Source: Arthrobacter sp. P2b (GTDB lineage: Bacteria > Actinomycetota > Actinomycetes > Actinomycetales > Micrococcaceae). From it: a stretch of 64,000 nucleotides of DNA. Both the position numbers and the translations under genes were made by a program. Positions 52,759 to 64,000 of this stretch are shown one piece after another. How positions within the stretch are numbered: the stretch's first letter is position 1; each line of letters opens with the position of its first letter. The notes under the pieces were generated by a model, which was not told the DNA's origin, ran no database searches, and worked only from the letters and a program-made list of their open reading frames with translations. The stretch spans positions 124,001 to 188,000 of the forward strand of contig NZ_FVZL01000002.1 in NCBI RefSeq assembly GCF_900168295.1. The letters run 5' to 3'.

Positions 52759-53718
52759 GTGACTGCCACCGTGAGCACAACAGATACGCCGCTGAACGCA
52801 TCCCGGGCATCAGGTGCCGGGTTTGCCCGTAAGGCCAAGGCGTATCTCGCCCTCACCAAACCGCGCGTTATCGAGCTGCTGCTGGTCAGCACGCTGCCCA
52901 CCATGATTTATGCGGAGCGTGGCTTTCCTTCGATCGGGCTGATCCTCGCCACCCTGGTTGGCGGCGCGTTTGCGGCCGGCAGTGCCGGGGCGTTCAACTG
53001 CTACATTGACCGCGACATCGACAAACTGATGCACCGGACGGAGAACCGTCCCCTGGTCACGGGGGAGGTCACCCCCCGTGAGGCGCTGGTCTTTTCCTGG
53101 CTCCTGGGTGCTGCCGCCATCGCCATCCTGTGGTTCGGCGCTAACCCTTTGTCCGCCTGGCTGGGGCTGGGCGCCATCTTCTTCTACGTGGTGATCTACA
53201 CGATCATCCTTAAGCGCCGCACGGCACAGAACATTGTGTGGGGCGGCGCGGCCGGCTGCTTCCCGGTGCTGATCGCCTGGGCAGCCGTCACCAACACCGT
53301 GGAATGGCCCGCGGTCATCCTCTTTATGGTGATCTTCCTGTGGACCCCGCCGCACTACTGGCCGCTGTCCATGCGCTACGGCGAGGACTACCGCAACGCC
53401 AACGTGCCCATGCTCGGTGCCATCGCCGGCGCCAAGGTGGTGTCGGTACAGGTGGTCCTGTACGCCTGGGCCATGGTGGTGTGCTCGCTGCTGATGGTCC
53501 CGGCCGGCGGGGCGGGCTGGGTGTACACCGCCACGGCTGTGGTGGCCGGCGCCTGGTTCCTCTACGAGTCGCATTCCCTGTACAACCGGGCACAGCGCGA
53601 GGACATCTCCGACAAGCGGGCCATGAAGGTGTTCCACGGCTCCATCAGCTACCTCACCTTGCTGTTCATCGCCCTGGCTGTTGACCCGTTCATCGGCCCG
53701 GCCGTCATGGCTGGCTAG
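52759..53718 (+). CDS. ctaB: protoheme IX farnesyltransferase (heme O synthase)
   Basis: A 319-residue UbiA-family prenyltransferase with about nine spans. It attaches a farnesyl chain to heme B, giving heme O for cytochrome oxidase. [20 protein letters not shown] is the hallmark start. [20 protein letters not shown] is the Asp-rich prenyl-diphosphate motif (DxxxD with RTxxRP), and [19 protein letters not shown] the second conserved loop. GTG 52759 or GTG 52771 could be the start. tkt on the other strand is its usual neighbour in actinobacteria. Confidence 0.96.
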
Positions 53719-53743
53719 CTTCCGTTCCGCCACTCCACCCGCA

Positions 53744-53788
53744 ACGCTCTTTCACCTTCCGCAGGTTTTCCGCGGACGCTCTCTCACC
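53744..53788 (+). repeat. pair of 13-bp direct repeats after ctaB
   Basis: ACGCTCTTTCACC (53744-53756) and ACGCTCTCTCACC (53776-53788) are 32 bp apart. The spacer holds CCGCAGGTTTTCCGCGG, a weak dyad. It lies where ordinary chromosome gives way to the recombinase region. The function is unknown. Confidence 0.5.
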
Positions 53789-53951
53789 ACAGCCCTGATT
53801 CCGGGGCGGTGAACGGGACATGCCTGGTTGCCCAGCTGCCCGGGGGTAGGTCATTTGAGCTTTCGGCCTATCTTTCCGGGTAAACCTCAATCTGCCTTCG
53901 TCGACGCGGAGTAGAGCAAGAGGTCTATGGAGTCGCCGCGGTAGCAGCCCG

Positions 53952-54230
53952 TCAGTAACTTTGAGTGTGAATCCCAGCGGTATTGGCGGCCTTTTGCAGT
54001 GCTGAGGAGAGCATGTTCTGTGTGAATCGCCTAAGCCCGTCCAGCGTTGCGATGACGAGGGTGCCACCCCCAATTAGTGCGTCCAAGGCCTGATCGAATT
54101 GGGGCCGTGAAGCCCGCGCTCCGGACACGGCGTGGTCAATGTAAGGTCATCGCGGAGGACGCCTGCGGTCAGAAGGTCTGCCTGTTGCCGGTCGCGTCAA
54201 AACACGTGCGCAGCCAATCAGCTTTTTCAT
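53952..54230 (-). pseudogene. decayed serine recombinase (resolvase) gene, N-terminal part
   Basis: Reading the reverse strand from ATG 54230 gives MKKLIGCARV, the resolvase N terminus (normally GYARVST). The catalytic Ser segment is then missing. After a frame change RDRQQADLLTAGVLRDDL appears (54200-54146), and after another shift IDHAVSGARASRPQFDQALD with LIGGGTLVIATLDGLRR, which matches the DHGxSG and LDRLxR blocks of small serine recombinases. The frame ends at TGA 53952-53954 after about 90 codons, with no C-terminal half. So it is deleted, frameshifted and truncated. The recombination element at 54291 lies 61 bp upstream of its start, where res sites normally sit. Confidence 0.8.
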
Positions 54231-54290
54231 GGGCTGCTCCGATGTGTCACATAACTAATGGATGATTGGCGTTCGTGTCCTCGTCCAAAC

Positions 54291-54332
54291 TCCTCGTGCC
54301 TCCTGCGTTTCGAGGCACTGACGCTATGAGAC
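54291..54332 (+). repeat. FRR recombination element a
   Basis: Three 10-bp arms with exact 6-bp spacers: F TCCTCGTGCC (degenerate), spacer TCCTGC, R GTTTCGAGGC, spacer ACTGAC, R GCTATGAGAC. It shares 23 of 26 bases with element d over the last two arms and their spacer. It stands just upstream of a decayed resolvase gene and starts module 1. Confidence 0.7.
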
Positions 54333-54388
54333 ACCCAAGGTGGGGTCAGAGAAGGAGTCGGCGCCCGCGGGCGGTATCGCGTATCGCA

Positions 54389-55216
54389 TCAGCTGGTCAT
54401 TTGTGGGAGCTTGAACACGATCGAGTCGAAGACGGTGCGTGCCTCTCTTGTCAGCTCCGGATTGATCGATTCGTGGAATTGGACCACCCAGAACATCGCG
54501 CGTTCGCCGTTCAGGTGGACTACCCGATAGGTTTCGCGCTCAGCGGTGCTCGAGTACCAGCGTCCGCATTCGTTTGAGATTGATGAGTGGATGCAAAACT
54601 TGTCGCGGTCGCAGGCTTTGAAGTCCACGTCACCCTCCACGGAGTGGTCGAACTCGACGCCGGAGTAATCGCCCACCATAACCTCGACGGGAGGGGTACT
54701 GGCCGTTGACGTCTGCGCCGTCATCGCGTCGACGAACGCATTAGCCGACGGATCGAGCTTGACGAGCGCGCCCTCCCACGCGCATGCGTCCCTCGGCACA
54801 TAGAGCGCGGGCCACCAACCCACGAAGACCCCATAATCATCCGGGTGATCCGGGTCGTCCTTAAACAGGCCATCGTCACTCCTCCAGCCGTCTGGGACGG
54901 TGATCTCGAAATTCTCTTGGAAGCTGGTGACGAGGTATGTACCGGGGTCGATGTCGCCTTCCGGCAGCGGTGGGACCGGCGGGACCGTGGGCGCCGGTGG
55001 GGCCGTGCGGGCTTCCGTAGTTGCTGCGGAGGATGGCGCTTCGGCGGGGGTGCACGCCGAGAGGCTTACGCACGCCAGCATTGCGATGGCGATGCCGATC
55101 GGGTGTGCGCTCCCGGCATGAGTGGGGCGGGAGCGCCGGTTAGAAGTCCACAGCCCGAGAAGCCAGACGGACAAGACTAATGTCATGGCGATGAAATGGC
55201 GTAGCAGCACACGCAT
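54389..55216 (-). CDS. lipoprotein, paralogue of the one at 61324
   Basis: A 275-residue protein. ATG 55216 has GGAGG 5 nt upstream. The N terminus has two hydrophobic stretches (about residues 8-23 and 39-53), the second ending in the lipobox LSAC with Cys55. A Pro/Ala/Thr-rich linker follows, then a mature domain that starts at EGDIDPGTYLVTSF and includes FEITVPDGW and GDYSGVEFDHSVEGDVDF. The same blocks occur in the protein at 61324. The long signal is unusual; a shorter start is not available in frame. Surface-anchored, function unknown. It lies inside module 1, between elements a and b. Confidence 0.8.
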   Translation of the reverse strand: MRVLLRHFIAMTLVLSVWLLGLWTSNRRSRPTHAGSAHPIGIAIAMLACVSLSACTPAEAPSSAATTEARTAPPAPTVPPVPPLPEGDIDPGTYLVTSFQENFEITVPDGWRSDDGLFKDDPDHPDDYGVFVGWWPALYVPRDACAWEGALVKLDPSANAFVDAMTAQTSTASTPPVEVMVGDYSGVEFDHSVEGDVDFKACDRDKFCIHSSISNECGRWYSSTAERETYRVVHLNGERAMFWVVQFHESINPELTREARTVFDSIVFKLPQMTS

Positions 55217-55531
55217 GGAGGCCTCCAAAGGCAACCCTTATGCTGCGGACGTTACGCCCAGCCAACACTGACCGCAAGGGCACGCCAGAAGCAAATGCCC
55301 CCCATTTTGGACAACGGGAACGGATGGTGAGTCCCGCCGCCGGGCGACTGTGGCCATCACCGCTGGTTCGCCAAAGCCTCAGCCCCCGTGTGCCTGAAAA
55401 GGCGCTCTCCGGGCTGTTTGTGAGCTGTCCTGCAAAGGTGCACATCCCGAGTGAATTGGGCGTTCCGTACTTCATCGGATCGAGTATCCTCGCTGCCGGT
55501 GCGGTGCCTGGTAAGGGCCCCATCCAAACGG
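55217..55531. other. gene-free part of module 1
   Basis: Between the lipoprotein start and element b both strands have open frames (for example plus-strand 55240-55569), but neither shows a ribosome site, a family match or convincing codon use. I see no gene and only the lipoprotein promoter region. Confidence 0.5.
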
Positions 55532-55573
55532 GTCTCAAAACCCTCTCGTCTCAGAACACAAGGGTTTAGAGAC
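55532..55573 (-). repeat. FRR recombination element b (reverse orientation)
   Basis: On the plus strand: GTCTCAAAAC, spacer CCTCTC, GTCTCAGAAC, spacer ACAAGG, GTTTAGAGAC, that is F-F-R; on the reverse strand it reads F-R-R like the others. Spacers are exactly 6 bp. The central dinucleotide of the 26-bp dyad is TT. It divides modules 1 and 2. Confidence 0.75.
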
Positions 55574-55898
55574 AGTCTGGAGCGTAGCGGTTAGGGCACC
55601 TTCACCGTGCATCATCGTGCGGGGTAAACGTGCGTACAGAGGCTAGTAACAACGCCGAGGGAAGAATTTATGCCTAGCTGCGCGCTTCACGACCGGCTAA
55701 CGCGACGATGTGGGGGCAATCCCTGACAGGACAATCAACGCTCATAAATCGGGAACCTCCGCACTCCGAGCAACCGTTCACTCGGTCCGACGAGTAGACA
55801 AGCATCAGTTTGGCTTTTCCATCTGACGCAGGAGCCAGACTGGTGACCAGATCGAAACACGGAATTCGGCCAAACCCCTATTTTGGTGATTCGCATTT
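55574..55898. other. gene-free, less GC-rich part of module 2
   Basis: This 325-bp stretch is visibly poorer in GC than the housekeeping genes. It holds a possible 18-codon ORF (ATG 55670, GGGAAG upstream) and no recognisable gene, and presumably contains the promoter of the lipoprotein that follows. Confidence 0.45.
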
Positions 55899-56351
55899 GT
55901 GGACAATCAAGAAATGGGACTTTTGGGAAAAACCCGTGGGTTTGCTGCTGTATGCGTCCTTATTTTCTCCGCTAGCTCTTGTGGAAGCGCCGGGCCCAGC
56001 AGTCAGCGAGAAGAAAGTGAGGAGCCACCGCTCCCATCAGTAGAGCCTTCAGTCGAGGCTACAAGAGGTGCAGAAATAGTCGATATAAGCGAGTGCCCCG
56101 AAACAATTTTGCTTCCGACCGATTCAACGGCACCAATCGCACCTTCCAGTTGCGGCACAAGATCCGTCCCGCTAACTGAAGAACAGATGCGCCAAGCCAC
56201 TCCTGCGCCCATGCCCCTTCAACCGAGTGCGCTGCCGGAAGGGAACTCGGCCGATTCTCAGATCAAGTTGATTGAAGAGGGGGAGCAGCGCCCGTGGACC
56301 CCGGAACGAATGAGAAGTGCCTCTCCAGAACCAATAACGAGAGTCCCATAA
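55899..56351 (+). CDS. putative lipoprotein, possibly truncated by a stop codon
   Basis: A 150-residue protein from GTG 55899 (or 145 from ATG 55914, which gives a typical signal KTRGFAAVCVLIFSASS before Cys, a lipobox). The mature part is acidic, Pro/Ser-rich and probably disordered. Two similar blocks, LTEEQMRQATPAPMPL and WTPERMRSASPEPI, recall the W-T-P-E-x-M-R-x-A-x-P pattern seen before trypsin-like domains in some actinobacterial secreted proteins (recalled, not searched). The same frame stays open for 61 codons after the TAA at 56349, so a longer ancestral protein is possible. It fills module 2. Confidence 0.55.
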   Translation: MDNQEMGLLGKTRGFAAVCVLIFSASSCGSAGPSSQREESEEPPLPSVEPSVEATRGAEIVDISECPETILLPTDSTAPIAPSSCGTRSVPLTEEQMRQATPAPMPLQPSALPEGNSADSQIKLIEEGEQRPWTPERMRSASPEPITRVP

Positions 56352-56544
56352 CGTATCAACTCACGGGCCGAAGAAAAATCTCCCGCGAAGCCTTGCTTAC
56401 TCGGGACGACGAAACCACCCGCATTTGCCGAGATGGGAGCAGTTTCAAATGCCATCCCGGCCGGGGCCAAAGACATTTGGCACGATCAGTCCGGTGAAGG
56501 ATCCCCTTACGGGTCAGCTGAATTCCTGTGTTTCTAACCTCAGC

Positions 56545-56586
56545 GCCTCGAATCCCTAGGGATTCGAGACGCAGGGGTTATGAGAC
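56545..56586 (+). repeat. FRR recombination element c
   Basis: F GCCTCGAATC, spacer CCTAGG, R GATTCGAGAC, spacer GCAGGG, R GTTATGAGAC. The first two arms with their spacer form a 26-bp almost perfect dyad with central TA. Its core is shared with element d in the same orientation. Confidence 0.8.
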
Positions 56587-56621
56587 AGAGCCTCAGACCA
56601 TTCCCTACTAGAAGACGGGGG

Positions 56622-57341
56622 CTAGACGATGGCTCCGTTATTGAGCTGCCGGCGCCGGGAACGGCGGGGGAGCCTCCAGGCCCAATATGTGATCATGAGT
56701 CCAGCCGTCGCGGCCCCACCCGCATACACCCAAGGCGATGACCATGACCCTTCGGGGGTGGGAATAGCAAAGGCAACTATGACGGCGGCCACGGCCGGAA
56801 CGACCTCCACGGTCGCCTGTAGAGGCGTGGCCCAGTACTCAGGGTAGGCCAGCCGGACCAGAGGGATGATTGGGAGCAGGAACAGGCCGAGGCTGAAAAT
56901 CACCCAGATGATGCTGAACGTGAAGACCGCCAGGCCCAGCACCAGCAGCCCAAGGAATTTCAACACGTCCACGGCCCGGAGCGGGTTTGCCGTCGTCGAT
57001 CGGCTCAGCAGCAGCCCCCAGGCCGGGAGTCCGAGCAACCAGCCGCCACACCAAAAACCCAGGTCCAGCAGCGCCAGGACCACGAGCAGGGCACCGGGAA
57101 GCAGGAACGCCACGGCCTGCCCCGGTGACGGGAGTTTGCCGGGCGGGCCGAAGATGCACACCCCGATCAGCAGGTAGGCGGCCACGTACCCGGGCAACAG
57201 ATCGATCACTGACGCCTGTGTCAGGCCGAACACCAGAAGCGTCAGCGAGGGCACCATCATGCAGACCGCGGCGAACGGCCATGGGTTGCGGACTCGCCGT
57301 TGCTGAATCACGGCAGTGACGCCAGGATGCCATGTGGCCAC
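56622..57341 (-). CDS. multi-span membrane protein
   Basis: A 239-residue protein with about seven or eight hydrophobic segments, for example FAAVCMMVPSLTLLVFGL, AVAFLLPGALLVVLALLDL and FTFSIIWVIFSLGLFLLPII. The C terminus is strongly basic (RLPRRSRRRQL), which suggests a cytoplasmic end. I recognise no family. GTG 57341 lies inside the end of the DUF2199 gene (34-nt overlap), so the two are translated together. It is the distal cistron of module 3, reading towards element c. Confidence 0.75.
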   Translation of the reverse strand: MATWHPGVTAVIQQRRVRNPWPFAAVCMMVPSLTLLVFGLTQASVIDLLPGYVAAYLLIGVCIFGPPGKLPSPGQAVAFLLPGALLVVLALLDLGFWCGGWLLGLPAWGLLLSRSTTANPLRAVDVLKFLGLLVLGLAVFTFSIIWVIFSLGLFLLPIIPLVRLAYPEYWATPLQATVEVVPAVAAVIVAFAIPTPEGSWSSPWVYAGGAATAGLMITYWAWRLPRRSRRRQLNNGAIV

Positions 57342-57802
57342 TCCCGGGTTAGCACCTCGTTCAGGTCCTCATTCGAGCTGGACACGCAGTAAGGCGTCTG
57401 GTCCACGTTCAGAACAGCCAAATCTACTGGCACGGCGAAGAGACCCCAGGGCTGAATCCTGTTAGCCAGGTACCCAGTTAGTTTCAGGTCGACGTACTGG
57501 GGCGCGTTCCAGACCCTGCAGGCGTGCTGGAGGTCATCGGGGTGAATGGCGATCCAGACCCCAAACCGGAACTCGTGCCCGCCCTGCAGCTTTATCGGAA
57601 GCAAAGCACGGACGAAAGGACTGATATTCGGAATCTGCATGAGTGTCGCCTTGTTGGGGTCCGGGTCGCTCAGCCAACTGTCCTCGACCCGGTGCTGTTC
57701 AGGGCTCTCCAGCACTGGATCCGGGAGACGGAACCGAACATCTCTACTATGGGCCGCCAAAGCTTGCCCGCACATCCCGCACGCGTGCTTCTTACCGAAC
57801 AT
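57308..57802 (-). CDS. DUF2199 domain protein
   Basis: A 164-residue protein. The N terminus holds a CGMCG Cys pair. Further blocks VRFRLPDPVL, SWLSDP, FVRALLPIKLQGGHEFRFGV followed by WIAIHPDD, and YVDLKLTGYLANRIQPWGLF with SSSNEDLNEVLTREWPHG follow the DUF2199 plan. No function is known for this family; the Cys pair could bind zinc. ATG 57802 is chosen because GGGGGA precedes it; TTG 57814 is possible. It forms a pair with the membrane protein. Confidence 0.8.
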   Translation of the reverse strand: MFGKKHACGMCGQALAAHSRDVRFRLPDPVLESPEQHRVEDSWLSDPDPNKATLMQIPNISPFVRALLPIKLQGGHEFRFGVWIAIHPDDLQHACRVWNAPQYVDLKLTGYLANRIQPWGLFAVPVDLAVLNVDQTPYCVSSSNEDLNEVLTREWPHGILASLP

Positions 57803-57904
57803 CACGTCCCCCAATTTGTAGTTGCCCAGGCGAGTCTACGTCGCGGGGCCAGGCGAGGTAGCGCAAGGTAGCCCGGTCTATCCGAATCTACTTTCGGGAA
57901 CCTT

Positions 57905-58096
57905 CTACGAAACAGTCTTCCTAGTTTGCTGCTCGACTATCCATGTTTGGACAAAATAGCTCTCGACAACTTCCGTGGCCACCAAATCCCTCATGCGGCT
58001 CCGACCATTCGCCTGGATCCGAAACCTGTAGACCGAGAGTTCCTCGATGGTGCCAATGTTGAGCACATCGCCCATTGTTGGACCATAAAGATTCAC
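57905..58096 (-). CDS. small hypothetical protein, second of a coupled pair
   Basis: A 63-residue protein (MNLYGPTMGDVLNIGTIEEL at the start, then RFRIQANGRSRMRDLV). Its ATG overlaps the stop of the preceding small gene (ATGA), which supports both as real. Basic and aromatic residues dominate the C-terminal half. No family is recognised. Small coupled pairs in exchangeable modules are sometimes toxin-antitoxin or immunity genes, but nothing here proves that. Confidence 0.6.
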   Translation of the reverse strand: MNLYGPTMGDVLNIGTIEELSVYRFRIQANGRSRMRDLVATEVVESYFVQTWIVEQQTRKTVS

Positions 58097-58365
58097 TGTG
58101 CCCGGGGCAACTCAAAATCAAAGTCTTCCCATGCATCTTCCCAACTATCCGTTGTGTCCTCTGCAGGCTCAGCCGGCAAGACCTCAACCTGTAATTCGAC
58201 GGGCCCCCTGTTGATGCCCGTCTCAAAGAGAATCTCGTTAAATTCCCGTGCCTCATCACGGCCACGGGCTGCCATGGCCTCGGCCAACGTTCTGGGCGGC
58301 GGAACAACATCAAGAACCACAGAGCCTTCTGCGGCGTATACAACTCCAGTTGTAGACACGATCAT
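58093..58365 (-). CDS. small acidic hypothetical protein, first of a coupled pair
   Basis: A 90-residue protein beginning MIVSTTGVVYAAEGSVVLDV, followed by a basic-acidic helix (EAMAARGRDEAREFNEILFE) and a very acidic tail (DTTDSWEDAWEDFDFEL). Reverse-strand TAGGAT ends 6 nt before its ATG, so a leaderless promoter is likely. Just upstream of that lies a lone ATTTCGAGAC, one arm of the recombination elements. The function is unknown. Confidence 0.6.
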   Translation of the reverse strand: MIVSTTGVVYAAEGSVVLDVVPPPRTLAEAMAARGRDEAREFNEILFETGINRGPVELQVEVLPAEPAEDTTDSWEDAWEDFDFELPRAQ

Positions 58366-58371
58366 GACCCG

Positions 58372-58377
58372 ATCCTA
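58372..58377 (-). promoter_or_regulatory. -10 hexamer for a leaderless small-gene transcript
   Basis: Reverse-strand TAGGAT ends 6 nt before ATG 58365. A single recombination-type arm (ATTTCGAGAC on this strand, 58379-58388) abuts it. Confidence 0.45.
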
Positions 58378-58391
58378 AGTCTCGAAATGAG

Positions 58392-58419
58392 GGAGGGTTG
58401 CCCTAGGGACAAACCCTCC
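58392..58419. terminator. inverted repeat between module genes and element d
   Basis: GGAGGGTT pairs with AACCCTCC over a 12-nt centre that itself contains CCCTAGGG. It could be a terminator or an operator; no T-tract follows on either strand. Confidence 0.4.
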
Positions 58420-58464
58420 ACGGCACAGATCCTGCAAAGTGCCGACGACAGGCCGGAGGCCTCC

Positions 58465-58506
58465 GCCGCATAACCCTAGGGATTCGAGGCACCGACGTTA
58501 TGAGAC
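58465..58506 (+). repeat. FRR recombination element d
   Basis: F GCCGCATAAC, spacer CCTAGG, R GATTCGAGGC, spacer ACCGAC, R GTTATGAGAC. It is the same orientation as c, with an identical CCTAGG core and central TA. It closes module 3 and opens module 4. Confidence 0.8.
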
Positions 58507-58669
58507 CCGGAGGTTCAGCTGTTTCGAAAAAATTCTTCGCAACGGCTTGCCTGCATTTCGATCGGTCAAGGTCTCTTGCCGGAACGCGCCTGTACAGCGC
58601 CCCGGCGGCGTCGCCGTGTCCTTCCCCGGCTAAGCTGGAGCCACGTAGCCATTCAGGTGGGGGACCTCA

Positions 58670-59374
58670 ATGACAGATCTTCAGCACGCCGAGACATCTG
58701 AAACCACAACGACGTGGTCGCGGCGCTGTCGGCGCATGACGCTGATCTACTGCGTCGCAGTTTTCGTCTTCCAGCTGCCTTTGATGGTGGGTCTCGTCCT
58801 ACTCAGCTTCTGGCTCTTGAACGTTGCCGGGCCACTTTTGCGAGGGGACGTCGCATTCGGCAATCCTGCCTACGAATATCTGCAGAGCTCGAAAGACCTG
58901 CTTGTCGCAGCCTTTGGAGTGCTGACCGCGACACTGGCCCTCTCCTCGGTCCTGCTGCACCGCTGGTGGAAACGCTCCACGGCAGCCCTGGGTCCAATGC
59001 CGGCGGAGCTGCGTCCGAAGACCTTTAAGGCCTGGAACCGGCAGAGGCGAATCATTAAAGTCACCTACCTCGCGGGCGGGGCAGCACTCCTGTGGATATT
59101 GGTCCTGACGGTGACCAAGGTTGCTTCCGGGGTGCAGGCCTACGAAGCATGGGCCGCCCTTGGCGAAGTCGGGTTCGACGATCCAGGCTACGACGAAGCG
59201 CACTCCCTGCTCGATATGTCTATTGCCCTGGGCGGTGTCGGTGCTATCGCTTTCAGCATCCTCAGCGTTTCCTGCTGGCGTAGCTACGGTCGGGCGCAAC
59301 AGGTGTTGGGTCCAGAACCTGCCCGAGTCACAATCCGCGAACTGGACGAATTAAACGTCAACCAAAGGGATTAG
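58670..59374 (+). CDS. membrane protein with four predicted spans
   Basis: A 234-residue protein with GGGGGA 7 nt before its ATG and TAAGCT (58631-58636) as a likely -10. Hydrophobic segments lie at about residues 24-50 (LIYCVAVFVFQLPLMVGLVL...), 75-95, 125-145 and 180-200, separated by charged loops such as HRWWKRSTAALG and AWNRQRRIIK. Both termini seem cytoplasmic. No family is recognised. It is the first gene of module 4. Confidence 0.75.
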   Translation: MTDLQHAETSETTTTWSRRCRRMTLIYCVAVFVFQLPLMVGLVLLSFWLLNVAGPLLRGDVAFGNPAYEYLQSSKDLLVAAFGVLTATLALSSVLLHRWWKRSTAALGPMPAELRPKTFKAWNRQRRIIKVTYLAGGAALLWILVLTVTKVASGVQAYEAWAALGEVGFDDPGYDEAHSLLDMSIALGGVGAIAFSILSVSCWRSYGRAQQVLGPEPARVTIRELDELNVNQRD

Positions 59375-59443
59375 TTAGCCGAGTGCACAGCGCCCGCTAA
59401 AGATCCCACTCCGGGCGGCCTACCGCTCCTCGACTTTCTACTA

Positions 59444-60076
59444 TCAGACGAGCAACGGTTCAGCTGCCAGTGCAGTCACAGCTTCTACCGCCTGGAACTG
59501 CGGATACTGTTTTTTGGGGAGCTGGTGGCGGTGATATGCCAGCCAGTAGCTCTCGGCTCTCTGGCGGGTAATGCTCATGAACTCCGGATTGTCATGGACG
59601 AACTGTGCATAATCCCTCCGCAGGTTGGGCCGCGTGGGCAGGGAATTCGTTACGAAAGTCAGGACATCGGAACCGATCTCGATGACGTACTCTCCGCAGA
59701 GCTGGATAACGAACGGGATTGTCCAAGGCACATCTAGATCCGACCGCAAAATATGGCGCAGTCCCTTTTGCCGCAGTTTCCCATTGTGGTGCCGAGACAT
59801 CCAGCAGGCGATGATGAGCAGCTGCATTGTGGTGAAGGGGCTTTTCCGCTCCCTACTAGGCCAGTCATAGTTGACCCGGTAAGGAACTCGTATTACTTCC
59901 CCCTGAACGTGGATGCTTGGGTAAAAACCAACGTGTTTGTTAGTGTCCTGGATCAATACAGCGCGCGTCGAAAACCGTGGCGGGCCGAGTGCGCCCATCG
60001 CAACTTTCGCATCTGCCCGCCCCGATTCAGGTATCGTGTCCAGCAACAGCGGATCTACGAATGACGAAGCGACCAT
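59444..60076 (-). CDS. hypothetical protein with His- and aromatic-rich core
   Basis: A 210-residue soluble protein. Recognisable blocks are FYPSIHVQGEVIRVPYRVNY, ACWMSRHHNGKLRQKGL, VPWTIPFVIQLCGEYVIEI and NPEFMSITRQRAESYWLAYH. I believe similar unnamed proteins occur in other Micrococcaceae and Microbacteria, but I can assign no function. ATG 60076 has no ribosome site, and the promoter is unclear. It is transcribed against its neighbours within module 4. Confidence 0.7.
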   Translation of the reverse strand: MVASSFVDPLLLDTIPESGRADAKVAMGALGPPRFSTRAVLIQDTNKHVGFYPSIHVQGEVIRVPYRVNYDWPSRERKSPFTTMQLLIIACWMSRHHNGKLRQKGLRHILRSDLDVPWTIPFVIQLCGEYVIEIGSDVLTFVTNSLPTRPNLRRDYAQFVHDNPEFMSITRQRAESYWLAYHRHQLPKKQYPQFQAVEAVTALAAEPLLV

Positions 60077-60243
60077 TCAGTTATTCAATCACCAGGCGAT
60101 CAAACCCTCGAAGCGGTACCCGTAAGCCGGTCGGTCACCGTGCTGCGGAGCCCCGCCGCCATATTCCGCCCCGTTCCTGGTCGAAGCCATGTACGTAAGA
60201 CCCGCACGATCAAATGCGTGGTGACGGGGGCATTACTGCAACC

Positions 60244-60828
60244 ATGTTCCTGATGAGTGGAATGAAGATCGGCTATGCCCGCGTCTCGACGAGCGATCAG
60301 GACCTGACCGCCCAACGAAACGCTCTCCTAGCCCTGGGTGTTGCAGAGAAGCAGATCTTCGTCGACCATGGGCTCACGGGAGCGAACCGGGTGCGCCCTG
60401 GTCTCCGTGAAGCGATGGCAGCGTGCCGAGCCGGCGATACGCTCGTGGTCACCAAACTCGACCGTTTGGCACGTTCCCTTTCCGATGCCAGGGGTATAGC
60501 CGACGAACTGACTGCCAAAGGGGTAGTGCTCAGTCTCGGCGGAAGCACCCACGATCCAACTGACCCGGTCGGCCGGCTGCTGTTCAACGTCTTGGGCATG
60601 GTGGCCGAGTTTGAGGCGAACCTGATCCGGATGCGCACCCGTGAGGGAATGGCGGTCGCCAAGGCGAAGGGACGGCTGAAAGGCAAGCAACCAAAATTAT
60701 CCAAGACGCAGCGAAAGCACCTTCTGACGCTGCACGACGCCGGGGAACACACCCAGGCTGAATTAGCGGAGCTGTTCGGGGTGTCCCGGACCACGGTGTA
60801 TCGCGAGCTCCAGCGGCGCTCCGTCTGA
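60244..60828 (+). CDS. small serine recombinase, resolvase/invertase (Pin) family
   Basis: A recombinase of about 190 residues. KIGYARVSTSDQDLTAQRN carries the catalytic Ser. FVDHGLTGANRVRPGLREAM and LVVTKLDRLARSLSDARGIA hold the conserved Arg pair, and LFNVLGMVAEFEANLIRMRT is the long dimer helix. The C-terminal HTQAELAELFGVSRTTVYRE is the helix-turn-helix that reads the half-sites. The start is uncertain among in-frame ATGs 60244, 60253 and 60262; the last gives the usual MKIGYARV. No domain is missing, so it should be active. It is the only intact recombinase among the five FRR elements and the best candidate to act on them. Confidence 0.92.
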   Translation: MFLMSGMKIGYARVSTSDQDLTAQRNALLALGVAEKQIFVDHGLTGANRVRPGLREAMAACRAGDTLVVTKLDRLARSLSDARGIADELTAKGVVLSLGGSTHDPTDPVGRLLFNVLGMVAEFEANLIRMRTREGMAVAKAKGRLKGKQPKLSKTQRKHLLTLHDAGEHTQAELAELFGVSRTTVYRELQRRSV

Positions 60829-60830
60829 GG

Positions 60831-60920
60831 AGCGATGGGCACCTCGCCGAGATCCATAAGTTGGTCGGCCCGTCAGGCGCCACCCTGTACCGTTACCTGA
60901 AAGTAGGAGATGACCAGTGA
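60831..60920 (+). pseudogene. orphan C-terminal tail of a second resolvase
   Basis: Right after the intact recombinase, another frame reads HLAEIHKLVGPSGATLYRYL then KVGDDQ and stop. This is a resolvase-type C-terminal helix-turn-helix (compare GVSRxTLYRYL) without its body. Its stop overlaps the next small ORF (GTGA), so that ORF was originally coupled to this lost recombinase. Confidence 0.6.
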
Positions 60921-61027
60921 ATATCGATACCGCTACCGCTGATGAGCTTTACCGCCTGCTGTTGGATGTACAGGACAGGCTGGGGTATCTGATCGAGGAT
61001 GATCTCCTCACGCTGGCGGGACGCTGA
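60917..61027 (+). CDS. 36-residue protein coupled to a resolvase remnant
   Basis: GTG 60917 has TAGGAGA 6 nt upstream and overlaps the stop of the resolvase tail. The product, MNIDTATADELYRLLLDVQD followed by RLGYLIEDDLLTLAGR, is an acidic amphipathic helix. Good ribosome site, coupling and regular hydrophobic pattern support a real gene. It might be a small partner of the recombinase; that is inference. Confidence 0.55.
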   Translation: MNIDTATADELYRLLLDVQDRLGYLIEDDLLTLAGR

Positions 61028-61323
61028 ACAGGTGCACGGCACGGCACGGAACGCCGTAGGCGTGGCCGTAAATCACCAGATCTCATTGGCTAGTTAGACC
61101 CGGGCGGTGAAAGCTGCCGCAAATTTGGCGTTTCCTCGCCGCTGCTTCAGGGCGCTCCTGTCATTGCGGGAAATTGTATGAGTCGAAACTGATCTCCATC
61201 CAACTCTTCATTGTCACGGATTTTCTGCCGGAGGAGACTTGAGGCGACGGCATCAAATTTCGGGCCCCGCGGGGCCACCCGGCTGCGGGGCCTCACAGCA
61301 CCTTGTAGCGGCCTGGTGGATCA
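61028..61323. other. gene-free stretch before the second lipoprotein
   Basis: No gene is seen. GGCCCCGCGGGGCC at 61263-61276 is a perfect 14-bp dyad about 50 bp before the lipoprotein ATG and could be an operator or attenuator stem. Confidence 0.4.
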
Positions 61324-62112
61324 ATGAGTTCGGTGACACCCCTCGAAAAGGCCGCTCAGCGGTCGCGCCATCTCTTGACTCTGGTGACTGTCGCCCTGAT
61401 TGGATGTCTCGGCGGGTGCGAGTATGAATTTAACGACGCCTCCCTCCCGTCTGCCAGTTCTCCGGTTACGGAGGCTCGCACGGTCTCACCGCTGCCGGAG
61501 AGTCGCGACACTCGCACGGTCCCACCGCTGCCGGAGAGTGGCGACATCGACGCCGGCACATACCTAGTCCCCGTCGCCGGCTACAAGGAGCCTTTCGAGA
61601 TCACCGTCCCAGACGGCTGGTTTACTCTCGACGGCCAAAGCCTGGGCAAGGACGACCGGGATCACCCGGCTGAATGGGCCGTCTACCTGACTCTTTCGCC
61701 CGCGGACTATGTGTCGATGGACGCATGCACCTGGCCGGGCGCCCTTGCCGATGTCGGTCCGTCGGCCGAGGCCTTTGTCAAAGCGATGGCGGCGCAGTCA
61801 TGGACGGTAAGCACCCCTCCCGTCGAGGTCATGGTGGGCGATTACTCCGGCGTCGAGTTCGACCATTCCGTGGAGGGCGACGTGGACTTCATAACCTGCG
61901 GCGCCCGCAGGTTATGTATCCACTCAGAATCTAACGTCACCTGCTCACGCTGGTACTTAACTCAGAATGAACACGAAACCTACCGGGTGGTCGACTTGGA
62001 GGGCCAGCGAGCTGTGGTCTCGGTGGGCTATATCGACGAATTGATCAATCCGGTGCTGATGAGAGAGGCACGCGCCGTCTTCGACTCGATCGCGTTCAGG
62101 TCCTACAAGTGA
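61324..62112 (+). CDS. lipoprotein, paralogue of the one at 54389
   Basis: A 262-residue lipoprotein. ATG 61324 has GGTGGA upstream. The signal RHLLTLVTVALIGC ends in the lipobox LGGC (Cys32). A Ser/Pro/Thr linker with two near-identical copies of the unit RTVSPLPES/RTVPPLPES follows. The mature domain opens SGDIDAGTYLVPV and contains FEITVPDGW and GDYSGVEFDHSVEGDVDF, matching the protein at 54389 throughout. One 78-nt internal segment differs by only three bases from its paralogue although the rest is far more diverged. Exposed on the outer face of the membrane; function unknown. Confidence 0.82.
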   Translation: MSSVTPLEKAAQRSRHLLTLVTVALIGCLGGCEYEFNDASLPSASSPVTEARTVSPLPESRDTRTVPPLPESGDIDAGTYLVPVAGYKEPFEITVPDGWFTLDGQSLGKDDRDHPAEWAVYLTLSPADYVSMDACTWPGALADVGPSAEAFVKAMAAQSWTVSTPPVEVMVGDYSGVEFDHSVEGDVDFITCGARRLCIHSESNVTCSRWYLTQNEHETYRVVDLEGQRAVVSVGYIDELINPVLMREARAVFDSIAFRSYK

Positions 62113-62179
62113 CCAGCTAATCCAATAGGCGATCCCGCCCCCCGGGCTCCGCCTCCTCCTCCTCTGAACTCACGGGGGC

Positions 62180-62221
62180 GTCTTATAGCCTCAGTGTCTC
62201 GAAACGCTGGAGTTACGAGAC
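62180..62221 (-). repeat. FRR recombination element e (reverse orientation)
   Basis: On the plus strand: GTCTTATAGC, spacer CTCAGT, GTCTCGAAAC, spacer GCTGGA, GTTACGAGAC (F-F-R), so F-R-R on the reverse strand. Central dinucleotide CA in that orientation. Its last two arms and spacer match element a in 23 of 26 bases. It ends module 4. Confidence 0.78.
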
Positions 62222-62597
62222 GCCTAGGTGCCAGTTGAAAGACCCTCACCGGGAGGCTAATCGGACAGGTCATACGAGCTTTCGGTGGCCAGGGCCGCAC
62301 GTAGGCGAGAACCCGAGGCACTGCACCCCTTCCATCGACCAGCTATCGGGCGACGTGCGGGCAGTCCTCTTCAGAGCCGGCCACCGGGAGCAGGGGCGTC
62401 TCTCGCGTGGCGTTGCGGCCGTCGCCCTGTATCCTGCGCCTGGAATCTGCTGCAAATCCGAGGACGAATTTAGGTTTAGACTTTGCCGGACAGCCGATCA
62501 GATTCTGGGGGAAATTTGCTTCGTCGTACCATCCGCGCCTCTTTGCTCATACTCACAGCCACGTTGGCATTCCTCGCCCAAGGGATGTAGCCAAAGA
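62222..62597. other. gene-free stretch after element e
   Basis: 376 bp with open frames but no ribosome site or family match. TTTAGACT near 62475 is a possible -10 region for the following membrane protein. Nothing else is recognised. Confidence 0.4.
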
Positions 62598-63173
62598 ATG
62601 TCGACAGCGCAGATCATAAACATCTCCATCACCGTATTCACGACTTTGTCCATTGCCGCCATTGCCTGGTGGGCACGCAAGCACCCCAACCGGTCCAAGG
62701 AGTATCCGGAGCAGGTCCGTATGCCAAAGGTGCTGTTGATCTTTGGCTGGCTCTGCGTGTCCGTGGGATTCCTCATGGGCCTGTTCGCCTTTACTACAGC
62801 CCGGGCACCTCTAGGTGCCCGTATTGCTTCGGTGGCGATTCTCTTGGGCGGGATGGCATTCATCACGATGTACCGCAACTTTTACGTCGCTCCGCGCGCC
62901 TATGAAGTTGCCTTTCGCAGCGTGCTCGGCAAGGAACACTTGATTGCCTATGACGACATCGTGCACTACAGCGTAGGGACGTTGAGAGGTCAGCAGTTCC
63001 TGACAGTGAAATCCGTTCATGGTGTCAAGCTCAGCCTGAACATGAGTGCTTACGACATGACTCCATTGCCGGGGGCGATTGATTTCCGCAAGGTGAAAGG
63101 CCGCTGGCCCGTCAGACCCGAGGTCGATGTGACGAGCAGCCCACCGTCTTCGCTGGGAAGCCGAGAAACTTAG
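62598..63173 (+). CDS. membrane protein with a PH-like C-terminal domain
   Basis: A 191-residue protein. ATG 62598 is the first good start; the ribosome site is weak (AAAGA). Three hydrophobic spans (about residues 7-26, 44-66 and 72-90) include VLLIFGWLCVSVGFLMGLFA. The C-terminal half (FRSVLGKEHLIAYDDIVHYS, then RGQQFLTVKSVHGVKLSLNM) alternates strands in the manner of bacterial PH-like domains. Function unknown. Confidence 0.7.
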   Translation: MSTAQIINISITVFTTLSIAAIAWWARKHPNRSKEYPEQVRMPKVLLIFGWLCVSVGFLMGLFAFTTARAPLGARIASVAILLGGMAFITMYRNFYVAPRAYEVAFRSVLGKEHLIAYDDIVHYSVGTLRGQQFLTVKSVHGVKLSLNMSAYDMTPLPGAIDFRKVKGRWPVRPEVDVTSSPPSSLGSRET

Positions 63174-63314
63174 GATGGTCCTCTAAGGGATGGCGGGCCT
63201 TGTTTCCTCGGGAGAAACTGCCCGCCATTTCTCATGTCACTGCGCTGCTCTCCTTCCAACCCATCGAGCTTCCCTCCGGCGCAGGGTTCCACCATTGGGC
63301 CTCGTTGCAGGACG

Positions 63315-64000
63315 CTACCGACATGTCGCGGGCTGGAAGTAGTGATCGCTGAGCCACGACGCAACCTCGTTGCCGAGCTCGGCGCCCTGTACAGCGGCGG
63401 TGCGGAAGTGGATGCCGCCCCAGACGCGAGAATCAATGACCTCCTGTATCGCCGCGGAGAACCCGTCGAAGTGCCGTGGCTCGCCCGGGAAGCGACCGGA
63501 GTTCACGTCGAAGGCGACCTCGTCCGTGCCGAAGAACTCCTGCGCCGCGGAGAGAGTCGCGCCGCTGACGCAGCCGTGACCAGACGGGTGCTCCGGGAAC
63601 GGCGGTGTGCCGAGCTGCGGGACGGTCACTGTCGATGCATCGAAGAGCGGTTTCCATGTCGGATCGGCTGCCGTCTCCGGATTGCCGTCGGTGTCGGCTT
63701 CGCGAATCGCCGCCATCGGACGCCAGAAGTTCCAGTAGTACCTGTCGTTCCAGCAAGCCACCGCGCCATCAGCGGCGGCGAGGTTGGTCATTGCGAAGAG
63801 TCGAGCCGCGTCGGGCAGGTCAAGTCCGTGCTTTACGGCGAGACTGCGGAACACGCCGTTCCAGAGTGCTACCGGCGCGGCTTGCCAGAAGATGGCCGCA
63901 GTGGTCTGGTCGTCGGTTCGAGTGCTACTCGCGAGCGCACCGATCTCCTTGACCTCGTTGAAGTCCGCTGTGTACTCGGCACTCCTCAGCGGGTTGGGAC
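63315..64000 (-). CDS. vanadium-dependent haloperoxidase / PAP2-family enzyme (partial)
   Basis: The reverse strand is open from the window edge to the stop at 63315 (228 codons seen; start outside). The beginning reads NPLRSAEYTADFNEVKEIGA, then IFWQAAPVALWN. NDRYYWNFWRPMAAIREADT carries the Lys/Arg-type active-site block (here Arg). PPFPEHPSGHGCVSGATLSA is the hallmark SGH segment, and a third block is RVWGGIHFRTAAVQG with Arg-His. Related proteins oxidise halides with peroxide or hydrolyse phosphate esters. The intact active-site residues suggest an active enzyme; export cannot be judged without the N terminus. Confidence 0.88.
   Translation of the reverse strand, partial: PNPLRSAEYTADFNEVKEIGALASSTRTDDQTTAAIFWQAAPVALWNGVFRSLAVKHGLDLPDAARLFAMTNLAAADGAVACWNDRYYWNFWRPMAAIREADTDGNPETAADPTWKPLFDASTVTVPQLGTPPFPEHPSGHGCVSGATLSAAQEFFGTDEVAFDVNSGRFPGEPRHFDGFSAAIQEVIDSRVWGGIHFRTAAVQGAELGNEVASWLSDHYFQPATCR

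What the first reader, a model, noticed from the sequence alone, without database searches (positions are those of the whole stretch)
54291..62221. Five 42-bp elements with a fixed F-N6-R-N6-R architecture
At 54291, 55532, 56545, 58465 and 62180 the sequence shows three 10-bp arms separated by exactly 6 bp. With F as GYCTCNWAAC and R as its complement, elements a, c and d read F-R-R on the plus strand, while b and e read F-F-R, which is F-R-R on the other strand. Arms vary but the spacing never does. Spread over 8 kb of otherwise unrelated sequence, this points to a site read by a protein, with the third arm under selection too. I know of no named repeat with this layout, but I cannot search.
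Basis: partly seen in the sequence, partly recalled or inferred. Interest (0 to 1): 0.93.

Follow-up and report, generated by a model that had tools for sequence, protein, structure and literature searches.

The report
Integron built on a serine recombinase
The five repeats are likely the crossover sites of movable gene cassettes that a small serine recombinase is predicted to insert one after another beside its own gene in Arthrobacter and related bacteria, much as integrons do with an unrelated enzyme; in this genome only a broken copy of that recombinase gene was found.

Summary
The five 42-bp elements are real and not chance. This genome has nine sites on three contigs; 38 of 72 genus-mates have strong matches. 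They are one of two related site classes. Class I (three arms, as in the window) bounds exchangeable gene cassettes. Class II (same 26-bp core, then GTCTCA) lies 142-180 bp upstream of one small serine recombinase family in 53 of 73 loci found by protein alone, with res-like accessory arms. Third arms point toward the recombinase at 27 of 42 further upstream sites, away at 4. Shared cassettes end at the core; one 1.44-kb cassette is 99.5% identical in two arrays with different neighbours. An empty platform matches a filled one up to the middle of the core. Three platforms are transposons with inverted ends and 8-9 bp target duplications. The window is an orphan array beside a decayed recombinase. 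I infer an integron-like capture system run by a serine recombinase. No integron integrase reached its cut-off in 14 genomes; ten paper searches found no description. Catalysis is untested.

The parts
53952..54230 (-). Decayed serine recombinase gene (start codon 54230-54228; 98 residues matched, two stops)
   Evidence: 55% identity over residues 1-98 with 2 TGA; 51% over 93 residues, stop and frame change; no other place in the genome matches as closely except resolvases at 49% or less
54246..54255 (-). Accessory arm GTTATGTGAC, 25 bp before the decayed start codon
   Evidence: Sequence printed; same place as the R arm at about -25 in 52 of 53 class II loci
54291..54332 (+). Element a: class I site, first arm poor, core spacer 54301-54306, third arm points away from the decayed recombinase
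54389..55234 (-). Cassette gene: lipoprotein-like, paralogous to 61324-62112 and to L020:5227-5967
55532..55573 (-). Element b: class I site, core spacer 55558-55563, third arm toward the decayed recombinase
56545..56586 (+). Element c: class I site, core spacer 56555-56560 (CCTAGG), with a weak fourth arm on its left
56622..57341 (-). Cassette gene, no Pfam match; shared with L054 and L056
   Evidence: 92% to L054 over 1346 bp starting at the site
57308..57814 (-). Cassette gene, DUF2199
   Evidence: shared with L054
58465..58506 (+). Element d: class I site, core spacer 58475-58480 (CCTAGG), first arm partly degenerate
60214..60828 (+). Second, intact small serine recombinase of another family, carried between d and e
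   Evidence: Pfam Resolvase + HTH_7; 39% to the array recombinase, no class II site upstream
61324..62112 (+). Cassette gene: lipoprotein-like, 3' end faces the third arm of e
62180..62221 (-). Element e: class I site, core spacer 62206-62211, third arm points left

Best explanation
The 42-bp elements are likely the cassette-borne crossover sites (attC-like) of an integron-like system in which a small serine recombinase is predicted to insert circular gene cassettes at a site (attI-like) in front of its own gene. Shown from sequence: (1) two site classes share a 26-bp core, 12-bp arms around a 2-bp centre (GTCTCGWAACCC-TA-GGGTTTCGAGAC); class I adds a third arm 6 bp further inside the cassette, class II adds GTCTCA and accessory arms in front of the recombinase gene. 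(2) Cassettes with different genes lie between these sites, and shared cassettes end at the core. (3) An empty and a filled platform match up to the middle of the core and part there. (4) Some platforms lie in transposons with inverted ends and target duplications. Inferred: the recombinase pairs class I of an excised cassette with class II, cuts at the 2-bp centre and joins, so each insert leaves F-N6-R2-R3 at its far end and renews class II beside the gene; near-palindromic centres would also allow the reverse orientation, giving four-arm sites and inverted cassettes. In the window the recombinase has decayed and the array is a rearranged orphan.
For: Class II 142-180 bp before the start codon in 53 of 73 loci chosen by protein alone, 0 sites in reversed sequence. 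Accessory arms: F pair 13 bp apart in 45 of 53, R arm near -25 in 52 of 53; 193 arm matches against 28 in reversed intervals. Upstream sites other than class II: 42 in 455 kb, third arm toward the gene 27, away 4, both 1, none 10; downstream 3 in 533 kb. Homology ends near sites: 224 of 268 within -24 to +6 bp of the centre. Segments shared with both ends at sites: 4 locus pairs, best L055/L071 96.5%. L057/L160 cassette 99.5% identical, different neighbours. L213 empty against L080 filled: 68 of 69 bp, parting after CCT of the core. IR 66-138 bp from a site in 20 cases, third arm inward in 16. Three units with 8-9 bp direct repeats. Core reads 12-2-12; nearest solved structures are a DNA-invertase and gamma-delta/Tn3 resolvases. 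Decayed recombinase with its accessory arm beside element a.
Against: No assay, no excised circle seen. 20 of 73 loci lack a class II site at my threshold, some with full-length genes. Class I centres are mostly TA (59 of 98), class II often TT (21 of 53), which a strict 2-bp match would hinder. Gene orientation in cassettes is only weakly biased: nearest gene toward the third arm 39 of 59 (p 0.018), all genes 71 of 127, not significant (gene calls by GC3). 20 of 98 segments between neighbouring sites have no inward third arm and 6 have two. In the window third arms of a, c and d point away from the decayed gene. The segment shared by the window (c) and L054 starts at a site but its far end does not lie at one. 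The empty platform L213 has a left IR only; no right IR was found by my pattern.
Confidence: 0.83

Rival explanations
1. Class II is simply the res site of a transposon or plasmid resolvase, and cargo changes by occasional crossing between res sites of different transposons, as reported for Tn3-family elements; there are no individually mobile cassettes.
For: Class II with accessory arms upstream of the gene looks like res; three units are TIR-bounded transposons; the recombinase is on 28 plasmid records; Tn3-family toxin-antitoxin modules joined at res site I (PMC7157771, passages).
Against: Rows of up to seven sites with a single platform or none; one 1.44-kb cassette moved alone between arrays and is partly repeated in tandem in L160; class I has its own third arm and lacks GTCTCA, so it is not a copy of res.
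Confidence: 0.11
2. R2-R3 are terminal repeats of small DDE transposons and CCTAGG is their target duplication, so the arrays are nested transposons.
For: Some segments have R2-R3 inward at both ends, e.g. a-b and d-e in the window; CCTAGG is the commonest spacer.
Against: Only 6 of 98 segments between neighbouring sites have inward third arms at both ends, 72 at one end; the core sits before a serine recombinase gene in 53 of 73 loci; the transposon ends actually found are a different repeat.
Confidence: 0.02
3. Xer-type or other tyrosine recombinase modules like pdif modules, with 10- or 11-bp arms and a 6-bp centre.
For: The 10-6-10 layout resembles dif-type cores, and modules with alternating site orientation resemble pdif modules (recalled).
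Against: CC and GG at the edges of the spacer are conserved, so the core reads as 12-bp arms with a 2-bp centre, and it sits before a serine recombinase with repeated arms. Host dif was not compared.
Confidence: 0.02
4. Operator sites of a transcription factor that happen to flank accessory genes.
For: Repeated arms at fixed spacing are typical of dimeric regulators.
Against: Homology between loci breaks at the core, which regulation does not explain.
Confidence: 0.02

Closest known systems
Integrons (IntI, attI, attC) and orphan attC clusters (CALIN; recalled)
   Same: Recombinase gene beside an entry site, rows of gene cassettes each with its own site, rows without recombinase, platforms in transposons and on plasmids.
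   Different: Enzyme is a small serine recombinase, not a tyrosine integrase; sites are short dyads with a third arm, without the attC core motif; gene orientation only weakly biased.
Tn3-family res sites and toxin-antitoxin modules acquired there (PMC7157771, passages seen)
   Same: res-like site with accessory arms upstream of a small serine recombinase; new DNA joined at site I.
   Different: Here cargo carries its own three-armed site and stands in rows; the TIRs and 8-9 bp duplications found are not those I recall for Tn3.
Hin/Gin DNA invertases (closest solved structures: DNA-invertase 4m6f and 3uj3; the name Gin is recalled)
   Same: Same enzyme size and fold family by sequence; 26-bp sites with 12-bp arms and 2-bp centre (site layout of hix/gix recalled).
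   Different: No fixed invertible segment; site classes differ and bound exchangeable genes.
pdif (Xer) modules in Acinetobacter plasmids (recalled)
   Same: Short gene modules bounded by recombination sites in alternating orientation, no recombinase in the module.
   Different: Those use host XerC/XerD; here a dedicated serine recombinase lies beside class II.
SCC cassette chromosomes with CcrAB/CcrC (recalled)
   Same: Serine recombinases that insert gene cassettes, sometimes in tandem.
   Different: Ccr enzymes are large and travel inside the element; here a small recombinase stays outside the cassettes. Ccr models in NCBIfam match far below cut-off.

Membership tests
Integron | Tyrosine recombinase IntI | tested here: not met
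   TIGR02249: 0 of 14 site-bearing genomes over the cut-off (none of the 14 control genomes is over it either, so the control has no positive); the array recombinase matches serine recombinases
Integron | Entry site beside the recombinase gene | tested here: met
   Class II before the gene in 53 of 73 loci, as an analogue, not attI by sequence
Integron | attC core motifs RYYYAAC / GTTRRRY (recalled) | tested here: not met
   Class I consensus has GTTTCGAGRC and GTTWYGAGAC, which do not fit GTTRRRY
Integron | attC recombines as a folded single strand | not testable with these tools
   Needs an assay
Integron | Rows of exchangeable cassettes that share the site | tested here: met
Integron | Mostly one gene per cassette, same orientation | tested here: inconclusive
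   Nearest gene toward the third arm in 39 of 59 cassettes; all genes 71 of 127; most cassettes have 1-2 gene calls
Small serine recombinase system (resolvase/invertase) | Enzyme with resolvase domain and C-terminal HTH | tested here: met
   PF00239 and PF02796 precomputed for close homologues; PDB matches over nearly the whole length
Small serine recombinase system (resolvase/invertase) | 26-28 bp dyad core with about 12-bp arms and 2-bp centre | tested here: met
Small serine recombinase system (resolvase/invertase) | Accessory binding arms near the core | tested here: met
   binding itself not tested
Small serine recombinase system (resolvase/invertase) | Strand exchange at the core by this enzyme | not testable with these tools
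   Only comparative joints
Tn3-family transposon module | TnpA transposase and 38-40 bp Tn3-type ends in the unit | not tested
   The units' cargo was not scanned for transposases; ends begin TGTGACTG with 8-9 bp duplications
pdif / Xer modules | dif-like 11-6-11 sites read by XerC/XerD | tested here: inconclusive
   Layout reads better as 12-2-12; host dif was not compared

The most novel reading that the evidence does not exclude
This is a second, independently evolved kind of integron: a transposon- and plasmid-borne platform in Micrococcales where an invertase-like serine recombinase captures gene cassettes, including phage-defence genes, at a res-like attI through three-armed double-strand attC-like sites, leaving orphan arrays such as the one in this window.
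Probability: 0.75. Interest if true: 0.97.

Novelty: categorically new. Interest (0 to 1): 0.93.

Why it matters
To my knowledge gene-cassette rows with a dedicated recombinase beside an entry site are known only from tyrosine-recombinase integrons with their unusual single-strand attC sites. A serine-recombinase system with the same logic would mean that cassette capture evolved twice, by a double-strand route with very simple sites, and would offer a compact insertion tool. In Micrococcales it would explain clusters of unrelated accessory genes: strong sites in 38 of 72 genus-mates and a recombinase family of at least 2688 proteins at E 1e-40 (not all need have such sites). Cargo includes a GajA-GajB (Gabija) pair between a class II and a class I site.

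Tried and rejected
Considered and dropped. (1) Regulator operators: the elements bound cassettes and the core sits before a recombinase gene. (2) TIRs of small transposons: only 6 of 98 segments have inward third arms at both ends. (3) Xer/pdif: the spacer is CC-NN-GG. (4) The window's own intact recombinase (60214-60828) as the enzyme: 39% to the array recombinase and no site near its start, though relatives of it also lie near some arrays (L021, L091, L111). (5) Known RNA families: none at gathering score in window 53500-63500. (6) Phylum-wide spread: 0 of 396 genomes of a phylum sample at E 1e-55; 12 of 297 genomes of the order at 1e-60. (7) A general tRNA-Leu platform: ARAGORN finds tRNA-Leu in L058 only, 1 of 7 loci tested; the others share only a stretch like its 3' end.

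Literature: ten full-text searches gave no description of cassette arrays with a serine recombinase; I saw listings with the starts of abstracts, and passages of PMC7157771. The library holds no bioRxiv preprints and lacks most subscription papers.

Counting caveats: some loci are the same genome or element reached twice (12 groups). Searches are not corrected for this; drop identical sequences; one search merges repeated cassettes by protein; one search uses one locus per group. Arm matrices were trained on loci that hold sites; the 80 loci were chosen by protein alone. Two notebook numbers were wrong and are mended here: one search gives 224 of 268, not 226; one search gives the third arm inward in 16 of 20 rows, not 17.
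Full report
What was checked. They are far above chance: best window score 49.9 against a maximum of 20.4 in 100 Markov shuffles, and 122 sites against 0 in reversed sequence over the window and 74 other loci. A scan that leaves the spacing free finds F-N6-R 123 times and N2-N5 and N7 once each, and same-direction arms at N6 (95), N5 (5) and N3 (44).

Other copies. The genome has nine sites on three contigs: five in the window, two on C25, two on C23, one of the last with the two-arm core only. A sequence-only model of eight copies found matches at E 1e-3 or better in 38 of 72 genus-mates and 1 of 47 other genomes of the order, counted from the listing. Some lie in rows, for example seven in 9 kb in L054.

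Element and gene travel together. Three lipoprotein genes (beside a, beside e, and in L020) are homologous through R3-N6-R2, and the homology stops at the first arm. The two genes right of c are in a segment 92% identical to L054 that starts at the site in both; its far end is not at a site. Over all loci, 224 of 268 alignment ends near a site fall between -24 and +6 bp of the N6 centre (pairs counted both ways, many from the lipoprotein family). Four locus pairs share a segment with both ends at sites: L055/L071 (96.5%), L071/L096 (91%), L055/L056 (83%), L055/L086 (85%) (gaps allowed inside). One 1.44-kb cassette (an ECF sigma factor gene, and a neighbour without Pfam match) is 99.5% identical in L057 and L160, bounded by sites in both, with different neighbours, and L160 holds the start of a second copy in tandem.

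The second site class and the enzyme. Two-arm sites followed by GTCTCA lie before a small serine recombinase gene. In 80 named loci found by that protein alone, 73 have more than 260 bp upstream, and 53 of these have such a site 142-180 bp before the start codon; 20 do not, some of them with full-length genes. Upstream of the gene lie 42 further distinct sites in 455 kb (third arm toward the gene 27, away 4, both 1, none 10); downstream 3 in 533 kb. Between class II and the start codon stand two F arms 13 bp apart (45 of 53) and an R arm near -25 (52 of 53); 193 arm matches against 28 in reversed intervals. This resembles a res site. Class I consensus: GTCTCGNAWC CCTAGG GTTTCGAGRC RCNGAG GTTWYGAGACAC; class II: GTCTCGWAWC CCTWGG GATACGAGAC GTCTCA. 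CC and GG next to the centre are conserved, so the core reads as 12-bp arms around 2 bp, the layout of small serine recombinase crossover sites (family knowledge). Centres: class I TA 59, AT 18, TT 6 of 98; class II TA 26, TT 21, AT 5 of 53. The nearest solved structures are a DNA-invertase (4m6f, 3uj3) and gamma-delta/Tn3 resolvases. No NCBIfam model reached its cut-off.

Platforms. In 19 of the 80 named loci an inverted repeat (TGTGACTGTTGGCG..., up to 6 mismatches) lies 631-723 bp after the recombinase start; none occurs in the reversed sequences. Three units have the matching inverted end on the other side and direct repeats of 8-9 bp: L064, L071, L173. In 20 cases an IR lies 66-138 bp from a site (17 after removing same-genome pairs), with the third arm inward in 16 of 20 (14 of 17). 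L213 reads as an empty platform: IR, 66 bp, class II, gene; no right IR was found. Its left part equals that of the filled L080 in 68 of 69 bp and they part after CCT of the core. In L058 the array starts about 600 bp inside from a tRNA-Leu gene; six other loci share parts of that stretch but have no whole tRNA. The recombinase occurs on 28 plasmid records; class II precedes it in 4 of the 5 plasmid regions looked at.

The window. A recombinase remnant with two stops lies at 53952-54230, its accessory arm still 25 bp before the start codon. It is the closest match in the genome by identity; the next resolvases are 49% or less. Third arms of b and e point toward it and those of a, c and d away, so the array is rearranged. 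I read it as an orphan array. The segment d-e carries an intact serine recombinase of another family.

How it works (inferred). A cassette circle carries one class I site. The recombinase brings it to class II, held by the accessory arms, cuts both at the 2-bp centre and joins. The far end of the insert becomes F-N6-R2-R3, the near end again class II. Near-palindromic centres allow the reverse orientation, which gives the four-arm sites seen in L054, L055, L058, L062 and L107. Unproven: binding, cutting, circles, and how TA and TT centres are matched.

Comparison. It works like an integron but is not one by its defining enzyme (0 of 14 genomes over the TIGR02249 cut-off; the control genomes held no positive) or by the attC core motif (recalled). 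The nearest precedent for new DNA at such sites is acquisition of toxin-antitoxin modules at res site I in Tn3-family transposons (PMC7157771, passages). In ten searches I found no description of cassette arrays run by a serine recombinase.

Cargo. Ten cassette proteins that I picked by hand as likely defence genes were scanned: 6 matched a PADLOC model, among them GajA and GajB (Gabija) in one cassette and a strong PDC-S19 candidate in another; NsnA, IetA and PDC-S39 matches were weaker and partial; 4 had none. This is not a census. Gene calls in cassettes came from a GC3 rule, not a gene finder.

Noticed in passing
L105:6325-10236: A cassette between a class II and a class I site encodes GajA (E 1e-182) and GajB (E 3e-114), a complete Gabija pair by PADLOC models; the recombinase beside it is only a remnant.
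   Followed up: partly
L058:12949-15854: Another resolvase gene, a rve/Mu_transpos_C transposase and an AAA_22 ATPase are followed by an end like the platforms' TIR with 6 mismatches; possibly the transposon that moves the platforms.
   Followed up: partly
L058:8381-9057: A tRNA-Leu gene lies about 600 bp before the array; parts of this stretch recur in six other loci before a class I site, a second kind of platform.
   Followed up: partly
window 60214-60828: Intact small serine recombinase of another family; relatives near arrays in L091 (70%), L111 (about 90%, in two frames) and L021 (53%).
   Followed up: partly
L020:6001-9507: A 1168-residue BTAD-nSTAND1 protein with weak beta-propeller matches lies between two class I sites of this genome.
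   Followed up: no
L160:1-1697: The ECF sigma factor cassette stands in tandem, the second copy cut by the locus end (97.5% against 99.5% to the copy in L057).
   Followed up: no
L206:7852-13166: A second recombinase copy of the same family in opposite direction lies 5 kb downstream of the first, beside another site.
   Followed up: no
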